This document shows positions 369 through 1,824 of a stretch of 64,000 bases of DNA, piece by piece. Both the position numbers and the translations under genes were made by a program. Source of the stretch: Streptococcus rubneri. GTDB lineage: Bacteria; Bacillota; Bacilli; Lactobacillales; Streptococcaceae. Position 1 is the stretch's first letter, and the number at the start of each line of letters is the position of its first letter. The notes beneath the pieces are model-generated. The model was not told the origin of the DNA, made no database searches, and saw only the letters and a program-made list of their open reading frames with translations. The stretch spans positions 496,001-560,000 of the forward strand of contig NZ_SRRP01000001.1 of the NCBI RefSeq assembly GCF_004785935.1. The letters are read 5' to 3'.

Positions 369-442
369 TGTCTATTATAACGGCAATTTTTGTAAATGTC
401 TGTTATAATAGACATTTTTTGTTTTTTCTGTTATAATAGACA
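369..442. promoter_or_regulatory. Three-copy operator/promoter region of satD
   Basis: Three copies of one 18-bp, nearly palindromic site lie just upstream of satD. Site 2 (397-414) reads TGTCTGTTATAATAGACA. Site 3 (425-442) matches it except for its first bases. Site 1 (369-386) matches the reverse complement with about two to three changes. Each copy contains a TATAAT-like core, so the sites overlap possible -10 boxes, and site 3 ends 16 bp before the satD start codon. SatD carries a C-terminal helix-turn-helix, so autoregulation is the simplest inference. Confidence 0.7.
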
Positions 443-458
443 TATGGAGGTGAGGCTT

Positions 459-1136
459 ATGTATCTTGCTCTGATTGCAGATGTTATTGATTCCAAAATA
501 GTTCAAGAACGTTTTGACCTGCAAAAACAGTTAGAAAAAACGCTTCAGAAGATGAATGAGTTATTTGCAGATTACTTGGCATCGTGTTTTACCTTAACCT
601 TGGGGGATGAGTTTCAGGCGCTTTTAAAAGTGGATGCTCCTATTTTTCATATCATTGATACCTTACGTTCGGAAATTAGTCCTACCCAGCTTCGTTTTGG
701 TATTGGCCTTGGAGAGATTGTAACTGCTATTAATCCCTTGATAAGTATTGGAGCAGATGGTCCAGCTTATTGGAATGCACGCGCAGCCATCAATATGGTT
801 CATCAGAAAAATGATTATGGTAATACCCAAATCTATTTTTCCAGTGGGAATGAGAAGCATGACTTTTTTGTAAATGCGCTCATCGCTTCTGGAGAAGCCA
901 TTCGTTCGGGTTGGCGTGGCAGTCAGGAAGAAATTCTACAAGATCTTCTTAAGAGATTTGTATATAGTGAAAATTTTAGCCAGCAAGACTTGGCACAATC
1001 ACTCACTATCAACCCAAGTGCATTGTCTAAACGTTTGAAGAGTAGTAGTATTCGCGTATATTTACGTGGGAGAGAAGCTGGCCTTGCTAGCATCCAAGCT
1101 TTAGCAAAAGGAGATGGTCATGACAGGATTGTCTAA
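459..1136 (+). CDS. satD: SatD family protein (cyclase-like domain plus HTH)
   Basis: A 225-aa cytoplasmic protein of the SatD family, named from the S. mutans sat (acid tolerance) locus; its biochemical role is not established. I chose the ATG at 459 because GGAGGTGAGG lies just upstream; a longer frame from 396 has no ribosome site and overlaps the operators. The first ~130 residues carry motifs in the order seen in class III nucleotide cyclases: ALIADVIDS (Asp8/Asp11), TLGDEF (Asp50), RFGIGLGEIV (79-88) and an N-A-R motif near 107-109. Residues ~172-200 (FSQQDLAQSLTINPSALSKRL) form a helix-turn-helix. It overlaps the next gene by 17 bp. The SatD assignment is firm; the cyclase likeness is my inference. 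Confidence 0.88.
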   Translation: MYLALIADVIDSKIVQERFDLQKQLEKTLQKMNELFADYLASCFTLTLGDEFQALLKVDAPIFHIIDTLRSEISPTQLRFGIGLGEIVTAINPLISIGADGPAYWNARAAINMVHQKNDYGNTQIYFSSGNEKHDFFVNALIASGEAIRSGWRGSQEEILQDLLKRFVYSENFSQQDLAQSLTINPSALSKRLKSSSIRVYLRGREAGLASIQALAKGDGHDRIV

Positions 1137-1824
1137 TATCGTAACGAATTCGTATTTGATTCTCTTGTTGATTTGTCATTTGTTATCGGATTATTATTTT
1201 CAAAGCCAAAAGATGGCGGATCGCAAGGATAAGGATATAAAGGTATTAGGACGTCATATTCTCTATGTGGCGCTACCTCTTTTTGTTGTGGTGCTTGTTC
1301 ATCTGGATTTGTGGTGGATTTGCTCGCTTATTTTGCTAAGCCATGCAGGAATAGATTATGGTAAGCCATGGCTTCAAAAGAAGTTAAAGCTGAAAACCTC
1401 TTGGACTTTTGCGTTGGATCAAGTCTTGCATGTTGGTATCATTAGTTTCCTAGTCCTTTTGGGAGCAAAAAATGGCACTAGCTATCTGCCTATGGACAGT
1501 TTAAAGCTAATCTTTTATGTTCTCCTAGTTGGGAAACCAACCAATATTGTTTTTAAAATTCTTTTTGCCAAGTACCAACCAAACATGAAAAAGAAGATGG
1601 ATACGATTGCCGGAGCAGGTTCCATGATTGGCTTTTTAGAGCGTTTGGTTATTGGAGCCTGTCTCCTGTATGGCCAATTTGCTTCTATCGGCCTTGTCTT
1701 TACAGCTAAATCTATCGCTCGCTACAATAAGATTTCGGAGAATCCAGCCTTTGCGGAGTATTATTTGATTGGGTCCTTATTTAGTATCCTATCTGCCCTC
1801 TTTGCTGCTTGGTTATGTCTATAA
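1120..1824 (+). CDS. DUF3307 multi-pass membrane protein
   Basis: A 234-aa integral membrane protein with about six hydrophobic segments. Family hallmarks are visible: HLLSDYYFQSQKMADRK near the N-terminus, LLSHAGIDYGKP near residue 80, and FALDQVLHV near residue 105. The conserved His/Asp pairs suggest a buried polar or metal site, but no function is known. The ATG at 1120 is preferred over the one at 1114 because AAAGGAG ends at 1113. The gene starts inside satD, so the two are translationally coupled and probably form one functional unit. A terminator follows. Confidence 0.85.
   Translation: MTGLSNIVTNSYLILLLICHLLSDYYFQSQKMADRKDKDIKVLGRHILYVALPLFVVVLVHLDLWWICSLILLSHAGIDYGKPWLQKKLKLKTSWTFALDQVLHVGIISFLVLLGAKNGTSYLPMDSLKLIFYVLLVGKPTNIVFKILFAKYQPNMKKKMDTIAGAGSMIGFLERLVIGACLLYGQFASIGLVFTAKSIARYNKISENPAFAEYYLIGSLFSILSALFAAWLCL

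What the first reader, a model, noticed from the sequence alone, without database searches (positions are those of the whole stretch)
369..1824. SatD looks like a class III nucleotide-cyclase-type domain fused to an HTH and paired with a membrane protein
Seen: SatD carries, in order, ADVIDS (Asp8/Asp11), TLGDEF (Asp50), RFGIGLGEIV and an N-A-R motif near 107-109. Class III cyclases show the same order: the metal-binding Asp of 'aDi', 'GD' of the second metal site, 'R.GI..G.v', and 'N.aaR'. Its C-terminus is a helix-turn-helix, and it overlaps a DUF3307 multi-pass protein. Inference: this could be a nucleotide-messenger sensor coupled to a membrane effector, formally similar in layout to Pycsar (cyclase plus membrane effector), or a cyclase-fold ligand sensor that lost catalysis. 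The acid-tolerance link of sat genes is known; the biochemistry is not, as far as I know.
Basis: partly seen in the sequence, partly recalled or inferred. Interest (0 to 1): 0.75.

Follow-up and report, generated by a model that had tools for sequence, protein, structure and literature searches.

The report
Self-repressing regulator paired with membrane protein
The satD gene appears to encode a DNA-binding regulator that controls its own two-gene operon through evenly spaced binding sites and may keep its partner, a membrane protein of unknown function, in check; the proposed link of its front half to signal-making cyclase enzymes is suggestive but not proven.

Summary
The motifs are there; D8, S12, G49, D50 and G101 are invariant in 36 diverse SatDs, but the 'N-A-R' Asn is residue 106 and not conserved. 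Sequence comparison leans towards palm domains (GGDEF, Cas10) rather than class III cyclases, weakly; structure prediction failed, so the fold is open. Stronger findings: (1) Upstream of satD lie palindromes 28 bp apart covering the -35 and -10. 53 of 57 Streptococcus upstream regions have one, against 0.26% of shuffles; the spacing recurs in other Bacillota and Chloroflexi with other palindromes. SatD very probably controls its own operon. (2) The real partner is the C-terminal membrane domain of the DUF3307 protein: 50 of 53 genomes with it have SatD. (3) In Streptococcus the partner is repeatedly lost while SatD stays; the reverse was seen once, in a doubtful assembly. A transposon meta-analysis reports satD essential though accessory in S. 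pyogenes. Best reading: an autorepressor with a ligand-binding front domain that restrains a membrane partner, antitoxin-like. Repression, restraint and toxicity are inferred.

The parts
371..384 (+). operator O1 (TCYRTTATAAYRGA, 1 mismatch), starts 88 bp before the ATG
399..412 (+). operator O2 (exact), starts 60 bp before the ATG; overlaps the -35
427..440 (+). operator O3 (exact), starts 32 bp before the ATG; contains the -10
409..437 (+). sigma-70-type promoter TAGACA-17-TATAAT with TG before the -10; best match in 300-2050 (11 of 12)
   Evidence: a consensus match, not a mapped start
446..450 (+). ribosome-binding site GGAGG
   Evidence: sequence
459..1136 (+). satD, 225 aa (PF16264)
459..848 (+). 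SatD residues 1-130, candidate palm/cyclase-like domain with D8, S12, G49-D50-E51, R79-x-G-x-G-x-G, D100-G101, A107-R108
   Evidence: fold not established
912..1073 (+). SatD residues about 152-205, helix-turn-helix
1120..1824 (+). DUF3307-family membrane protein, 234 aa, overlapping satD by 17 nt; six to seven hydrophobic segments
1156..1458 (+). PF11750 half of the partner (residues 13-113), degenerate or missing in some partners
1603..1821 (+). C-terminal domain of the partner (profile A6), the part that tracks SatD; G171, E174, K197, R201, G218 invariant in 75 of 75 rows

Best explanation
satD and the DUF3307 gene form one self-contained operon. SatD binds, through its C-terminal helix-turn-helix, a row of palindromes exactly 28 bp apart that cover the -35 and -10 of its own promoter, and represses it; the fixed spacing implies contact between neighbouring SatD molecules on DNA. 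The N-terminal domain keeps an invariant acidic pair (D8, D50) in a motif order like that of palm/cyclase domains, and most likely binds metal and a nucleotide-like ligand that sets the regulator's state. SatD restrains the membrane partner, through expression and perhaps directly, and the partner is harmful when unrestrained, so the pair behaves like an antitoxin and its effector. Shown computationally: the overlapping gene pair, the operator-like array, the invariant residues and the near-obligate pairing. Inferred: binding of SatD to the array, repression, ligand binding, restraint and toxicity.
For: Operators: at least one site with <=1 mismatch in 53 of 57 distinct Streptococcus upstream regions and two or more with <=2 mismatches in 54 of 57; shuffles give 0.26% and 0%. 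Palindrome pairs at exactly 28 bp in 13 of 55 non-streptococcal upstream regions, 0.1 expected from shuffles. Promoter overlap. Pairing: partner found in 136 of 146 SatD loci; C-terminal domain in 53 of 299 genomes, 50 with SatD. Asymmetric loss: in 284 Streptococcus genomes no DUF3307 genome lacks a satD gene, whole or damaged, once one spurious hit is removed; intact SatD with broken or missing partner in 18 judged genomes, damaged SatD with intact partner in 1, whose breaks lie in T runs in what appears to be the same assembly. Reported essential though accessory in S. pyogenes (PMC11323703, passages). Where a partner is recognisable, D8 in 128 of 128 and D50 in 131 of 131 readable rows; D8 replaced in 6 of 9 partner-less rows of the S. 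suis group that keep HTH and operators.
Against: No binding, expression or toxicity data. Operators could mediate activation. The losses are clustered in related species: 11 changes on the SatD tree, only 6 forced by well-supported branches. Outside Streptococcus one genome (G284, 61% complete) shows satD in two pieces beside an apparently intact partner. The essentiality claim rests on one meta-analysis, read as passages only. SatD persists without the partner in part of the S. suis group, so it may have another job, although there its D8 is often gone. Profile scores to GGDEF and Cas10 palms (24.3, 23.3) are barely above, or below, the best of 28 families from the same loci (23.1, 28.9), and a Streptococcus-rich full-length SatD profile scores only 19.2, 18.9 and 19.9 against GGDEF, Cas10 and cyclase.
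Confidence: 0.45

Rival explanations
1. SatD is an ordinary ligand-responsive autorepressor (palm-like sensor that lost or never had catalysis, plus HTH, laid out like PucR-type regulators); the DUF3307 protein is a useful membrane protein, for instance a transporter or stress protein, and is not toxic.
For: Operator array and HTH; weak GGDEF_2 matches in consistent register; PucR-type MabR combines a GGDEF domain without catalytic motifs with an HTH (PMC11617747, abstract and section headings). Decay of an effector before its regulator can have many reasons.
Against: Essential-but-accessory status in S. pyogenes and the one-sided pattern of loss are not expected of a merely useful target. Strict retention of both acidic residues is unusual for a sensor without metal or catalysis.
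Confidence: 0.3
2. SatD is an active nucleotide enzyme; its product, made all the time, keeps the membrane partner closed, as c-di-AMP from mCpol does in Panoptes, and SatD also controls transcription.
For: Two-gene layout and antitoxin-like pattern; D8 and D50 strictly kept with the partner; weak mCpol matches in 2 of 36 SatDs; Panoptes mechanism (PMC12657230, PMC12657218, passages).
Against: No canonical catalytic signature: the GG of GGDEF/GGDD is x-G, and the cyclase Asn is absent. The window's partner matches no PADLOC model and no Pfam model but PF11750, so no S-2TM-beta domain is seen. Profile evidence is near background level.
Confidence: 0.15
3. The N-terminal domain is not a palm or cyclase domain at all, but another alpha/beta fold whose acidic pair does something else.
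For: Single-pair profile scores are not separated from other families; D-x-x-x-S and G-D-E-x-Q are not the signatures of Cas10 or class III cyclases as seen in the sequences fetched here, nor of GGDEF (recalled); against solved structures the N-terminal part has only marginal hits, E 0.15 or worse (2kjp, 1ybt, 3i18).
Against: Weak matches from several directions (GGDEF_2, mCpol, GGDEF profile over residues 4-118, Cas10 profile) fall in the same register; 0 of 150 column shuffles reach the GGDEF or Cas10 scores.
Confidence: 0.3
4. SatD is a secretion or acid-tolerance protein, as its name says.
For: Name and annotation; S. mutans sat operon papers are cited for acid tolerance (reference lists).
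Against: The module lies near ffh only in some species (S. ratti, S. suis, S. porci), and near topA/trmFO, tsf, ruvB, opuA or SIR2 genes in others; the cited paper's own title assigns the role to Ffh (paper not held).
Confidence: 0.03

Closest known systems
PucR/CdaR-type regulators (GGDEF_2 domain plus C-terminal HTH; MabR)
   Same: A GGDEF-like palm domain followed by a C-terminal HTH with degenerate catalytic motif (MabR).
   Different: SatD matches GGDEF_2 only below cut-off in 3 of 36 members, keeps two invariant acidic residues, and travels with one membrane partner.
Panoptes (mCpol/OptS plus 2TM-beta/OptE)
   Same: Two-gene unit of a palm-type protein and a membrane protein; loss of the first appears harmful while the second is present (for SatD inferred and the loss pattern).
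   Different: SatD has an HTH and an operator array; no mCpol match above cut-off; no 2TM-beta domain seen in the partner; no nucleotide product known.
Type II toxin-antitoxin operons
   Same: Overlapping genes, first gene with a DNA-binding domain and palindromes in its own promoter, one-sided loss, reported essentiality of the first gene (defining features recalled).
   Different: The first protein carries a palm/cyclase-like domain; the presumed effector is a membrane protein with six to seven hydrophobic segments; no toxicity test.
Class III nucleotidyl cyclases and Pycsar
   Same: Order of motifs: Asp, GD about 42 residues later, R-x-G-I-G, then A-R.
   Different: No family match, no conserved catalytic Asn, profile comparison at noise.

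Membership tests
Class III nucleotidyl cyclase (PF00211) | Two metal-binding Asp in the first and second motif | tested here: met
   D8 and D50 in 36 of 36 diverse SatDs; metal binding itself not tested
Class III nucleotidyl cyclase (PF00211) | Match to the family profile | tested here: not met
   No Guanylate_cyc match in 30 of 36 SatDs scanned one by one at E<=0.05; profile score 19.0, 3 of 150 shuffles as high
Class III nucleotidyl cyclase (PF00211) | Transition-state Asn and Arg (N-x-A-A-R; role recalled) | tested here: not met
   N106 is Asn in 29 of 131 readable rows; R108 in 27 of 36 diverse
Class III nucleotidyl cyclase (PF00211) | Cyclase fold and cyclase activity | not testable with these tools
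   structure predictor switched off; no biochemistry
GGDEF / Cas10 palm superfamily | Profile similarity over the domain in motif register | tested here: inconclusive
   GGDEF score 24.3 over residues 4-118, Cas10 23.3, each 0 of 150 shuffles, but the best of 28 families from the same loci reach 23.1 and 28.9
GGDEF / Cas10 palm superfamily | GG(D/E)EF or GGDD signature | tested here: not met
   x-G-D-E-x-Q; the first Gly is missing
PucR-type regulator | GGDEF-like domain plus C-terminal HTH matched above cut-off | tested here: not met
   HTH present; GGDEF_2 below cut-off (17.9 against 24.5 bits at best)
Panoptes | mCpol-type synthase | tested here: not met
   2 of 36 weak mCpol matches, best E 0.0022, 18.8 bits against a cut-off of 26.4
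Panoptes | Adjacent membrane effector | tested here: met
   membrane partner found in 136 of 146 SatD loci; of another type than 2TM-beta as far as searches show, and not shown to be an effector
Panoptes | Nucleotide product restrains the effector | not testable with these tools
   needs biochemistry
Type II toxin-antitoxin operon | Antitoxin gene first, DNA-binding, operators in own promoter | tested here: met
   by sequence only; the order is reversed in a few loci, e.g. L016, L025-L028
Type II toxin-antitoxin operon | Antitoxin needed only while the toxin is present | tested here: inconclusive
   18 to 1 asymmetry in Streptococcus, not independent lineages; a contrary case outside the genus, G284; published essentiality
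Type II toxin-antitoxin operon | Second gene toxic alone | not testable with these tools
   needs expression test

The most novel reading that the evidence does not exclude
SatD is one protein that unites a nucleotide-handling palm domain with a DNA-binding repressor and serves as guard of a membrane effector of an undescribed family: while the palm site is occupied or active, the effector is silent; when a phage or stress empties it, the partner is both released and induced. That would be a Panoptes-like guard wired into transcription, present in Firmicutes, Chloroflexi, Actinobacteria, Proteobacteria and haloarchaea, and hidden under an acid-tolerance name.
Probability: 0.15. Interest if true: 0.85.

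Novelty: new variant of a known kind. Interest (0 to 1): 0.6.

Why it matters
A widespread family known only by a borrowed name gets a testable role: an operon-specific regulator with an unusual 28-bp operator array, bound to one membrane partner whose most conserved domain matches no Pfam model in the window's protein. It offers an explanation for the reported puzzle of a gene that is essential yet absent from about 29% of S. pyogenes genomes. If the front domain handles nucleotides, it adds a new guard-type signalling pair.

Tried and rejected
Class III cyclase as closest relative: rejected as unproven after the deeper profile lost the register (one search gave P 0.0068 in register with 9 cyclases, with 89 cyclases, gave P 0.074 and 0.026 with short matches; the match lay on the R-x-G-I-G motif, that out of register). 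A decisive profile-based palm assignment: rejected after 28 families from the same loci (one of them SatD itself) gave similar scores. Defence-system membership: no PADLOC family for P0002, P0003 and two other SatDs beyond one E 0.025 match in the HTH part. Viral carriage: no match in 50,697 phage records at E 1e-3 and none confirmed among 70 pattern matches in viral contigs. A large regulon: in the window's own genome, sites with <=1 mismatch to the 16-bp pattern lie at satD and at one other place. G332 as a DUF3307 orphan: rejected, my profile finds nothing there. G562 was left out of the count of missing partners because its contig ends about 0.7 kb past satD.

Literature: searches (open PMC library only; listings are capped) showed no paper on SatD biochemistry or on the pair; in the papers opened, SatD is a passing mention or a row in a gene list, apart from the essentiality finding. 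The 2001 sat operon paper is not held; its 1999 forerunner was seen only in reference lists and not looked up.

Full report
What is there. The window comes from a Streptococcus genome (inferred from its named relatives; the closest named SatD loci are 84-90% identical, S. australis, S. xiaochunlingii, S. parasanguinis and others). satD runs 459-1136 and the DUF3307 gene 1120-1824, between the end of a topA gene (zinc-ribbon part) and trmFO (named from recall of its sequence). SatD matches Pfam SatD (PF16264, 3.8e-80); the partner matches DUF3307 (PF11750, 3e-17) only over residues 13-113.

Conservation. In 36 diverse SatDs, D8, S12, G49, D50 and G101 are invariant, and N33, E51, Q53, R79, G81, G83, G85, A107 and A179 are at least 90% conserved. 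D11 and N106 are not conserved. Among 135 distinct rows whose locus holds a recognisable partner (profile over 150 bits; some rows are fragments), D8 is kept in 128 of 128 readable rows and D50 in 131 of 131.

Is it a cyclase? The order Asp, about 42 residues, GD, about 30 residues, R-x-G-I-G, about 20 residues, D-G, A-R resembles both class III cyclases and GGDEF/Cas10 palms. Weak family matches point to palms: GGDEF_2 in 3 of 36 members (best 0.0038), mCpol in 2 of 36 (best 0.0022), each stretch spanning the GDE motif. No Guanylate_cyc match was seen in the 30 members scanned one by one at E<=0.05. Against solved structures, matches to the N-terminal part are marginal (2kjp 0.15, 1ybt 0.51, 3i18 0.67); 1ybt is, from recall, a mycobacterial adenylyl cyclase domain, though the listing calls it a hydrolase. 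Profile against profile, residues 1-130 score 24.3 with GGDEF over residues 4-118, putting D8 on the first-strand Asp and GDEF on GGDEF; 23.3 with Cas10 palms; 19.0 with 89 cyclases. None of 150 column shuffles reach the first two, 3 reach the third. However, families from the same loci (28 clusters, one of them SatD) reach 23.1, 28.9 and 26.7, and that Streptococcus-rich full-length SatD cluster itself scores only 19.2, 18.9 and 19.9 (GGDEF, Cas10, cyclase). Known relatives compared in the same way score 32.7 (GGDEF-cyclase), 43.7 (GGDEF-Cas10) and 31.0 (Cas10-cyclase). Earlier runs: SatD against 9 cyclases P 0.0068 in register, against Cas10 P 0.012, reversed SatD 0.21 and 0.43; with more sequences 0.074 and 0.015. 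The palm assignment is therefore a lead, not a result.

The operator array. Three near-identical palindromes lie at 371-384, 399-412 and 427-440, exactly 28 bp apart. The best promoter match of the region, TAGACA-17-TATAAT at 409-437, has its -35 overlapping the second and its -10 inside the third. Of 57 distinct Streptococcus upstream regions (130 bp; regions with Ns and duplicates dropped), 53 have a site with at most one mismatch and 54 have at least two with at most two mismatches; dinucleotide shuffles give 0.26% and 0%, and the rest of the loci 0.002 per 130 bp. The consensus was drawn up from these same regions, so the shuffles are a control for chance, not for that choice. Examples are Anaeromonas, Abiotrophia, Erysipelothrix (Bacillota) and Anaerolineaceae (Chloroflexi); most of the other non-streptococcal regions show no such pair. 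Together with the HTH this makes autoregulation by SatD very probable, with contacts between neighbouring SatD units. Repression rather than activation is inferred from the overlap with -35 and -10. One other place in the genome comes within one mismatch.

The partner. Of 146 SatD loci (redundant, fetched by SatD similarity), 136 hold a partner by my profile, usually just after satD and in a few (L016, L025-L028) just before it; some are broken. The N-terminal PF11750 half is degenerate or missing in several partners (e.g. L004-L007, L016, L025-L028), while a C-terminal domain of about 75 residues is there in each of 75 non-redundant partners or pieces: G171, E174, K197, R201 and G218 in 75 of 75. 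A profile of that domain (A6) hits 53 of 299 genomes of the phylum; 50 have SatD. The other three are a very weak hit (G030), a 53-residue fragment (G253) and G268, where a divergent SatD lies next to it. Four SatD genomes have no hit to the domain (G082, G148, G205, G251). Eight genomes with PF11750 but without the C-terminal domain all lack SatD. So the C-terminal domain, not DUF3307 as Pfam draws it, is the part that tracks SatD. The best solved-structure match is E 0.87.

Who can be lost. In 284 Streptococcus genomes SatD is in 139 and PF11750 in 127; 126 overlap, and the odd one, G332, is a spurious hit. I inspected the sequence only of those flagged by short frames, stops or absence; the rest are taken as intact from their open frames. 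SatD intact with broken partner: G360, G337 (break at about the same place), G311, G314, G556, G399, G542, G503 (8). SatD intact with no partner: 10, plus G562, which cannot be judged at a contig end. SatD damaged: G559 and G563 (no partner), G468, G306, G335 and G393 (partner broken too; G393 by loss of the first 11 residues), G531 (partner intact). G531 appears to be the same assembly as L082 (HSISM1; contig lengths differ by 100 bases); in L082 two single-base deletions, one in satD and one upstream, lie in T runs, suggesting sequencing error. Outside the genus, G284 (61% complete) shows satD in two pieces beside an apparently intact partner, a case against the rule. On a tree of 79 SatDs, loss of the intact partner needs 11 changes, of which well-supported branches force 6. 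Taken as 11 against 1 this is one-sided; at the floor of 6 against 1 it would not be significant. In partner-less SatDs of the S. suis group, D8 is replaced in 6 of 9 distinct rows, near each other on the tree, while reading frame, HTH and operators remain: the acidic site seems to matter only while the partner is there. These rows are related, so this may be one or two events.

Independent support. A transposon meta-analysis of S. pyogenes reports satD as the single accessory gene (178 of 249 genomes) in the upper quarter of essentiality scores, essential in emm1, emm28 and emm49 strains (PMC11323703, passages). An essential gene that many strains lack is what an antitoxin-like guard would look like; the passages seen do not say so. 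Other mentions: an S. suis sRNA binds satD mRNA (PMC12005413, passages); satD falls to 0.47-fold with lysozyme in one S. gallolyticus strain (PMC5786311, passage); SatD differs between S. pyogenes M1 sublineages (PMC10210942, passage).

The name. Both topA and trmFO flank the pair within the fetched stretch in 29 of 80 named loci. Of the other places looked at (10 neighbour proteins scanned), the neighbour is ffh in S. ratti, S. suis (one small ORF between) and S. porci, tsf in a bin titled Fusobacteria, ruvB in Gemella, opuA in S. sanguinis, SIR2 in S. anginosus. It is a cassette with its own promoter found at many places; 'secretion and acid tolerance' most likely comes from the ffh neighbourhood (sat operon papers seen only as references; the 2001 one not held).

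Mechanism. Shown by computation: overlapping genes, operator-like array, pairing, invariant acidic residues, one-sided loss. Inferred: SatD represses its promoter by cooperative binding; its front domain binds metal and a nucleotide-like ligand; it keeps a membrane partner from doing harm. Whether restraint is only transcriptional, by contact, or by a product cannot be told. The Panoptes precedent, in which mCpol's c-di-AMP restrains a toxic two-helix membrane protein (PMC12657230, PMC12657218, passages), makes the last possibility worth testing, but SatD fails the sequence tests for mCpol.

Verdict. The finding is a regulator-partner pair with an unusual operator array and an undescribed membrane domain.

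Noticed in passing
G000:C1:1380955-1380970 (L352): A lone near-perfect SatD-type palindrome (1 mismatch) about 60 bp upstream of a small lipoprotein-like ORF on the minus strand; a possible second target.
   Followed up: partly
G000:C1:56228-56243 (L353): A weaker palindrome (2 mismatches) just before a FolD-like ORF (name from recall of the sequence); probably a chance overlap with a -10.
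   Followed up: no
G472:C32 (L234, L235): satD and an intact DUF3307 gene lie about 17 kb apart in opposite orientation, so the two genes have been separated in this genome.
   Followed up: partly
L016, L025-L028: In a group of other Firmicutes the partner gene precedes satD, with a degenerate PF11750 half but an intact C-terminal domain.
   Followed up: partly
L005-L007 (haloarchaeal, Sphingomonas and Agrobacterium plasmids): Short partners of about 145-160 residues keep essentially only the C-terminal domain, which may be the minimal partner.
   Followed up: partly
L033 (G235:C46): Two satD copies close together, one damaged, the other beside the partner.
   Followed up: no
L098:7464-8222: A DNA/RNA non-specific endonuclease gene (PF13930) lies just after the pair in S. 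sanguinis, on the other strand.
   Followed up: no
satD upstream regions: A 28-bp step is 2.67 helical turns of 10.5 bp, so three steps make eight full turns; successive SatD units would sit 120 degrees apart around the DNA.
   Followed up: no
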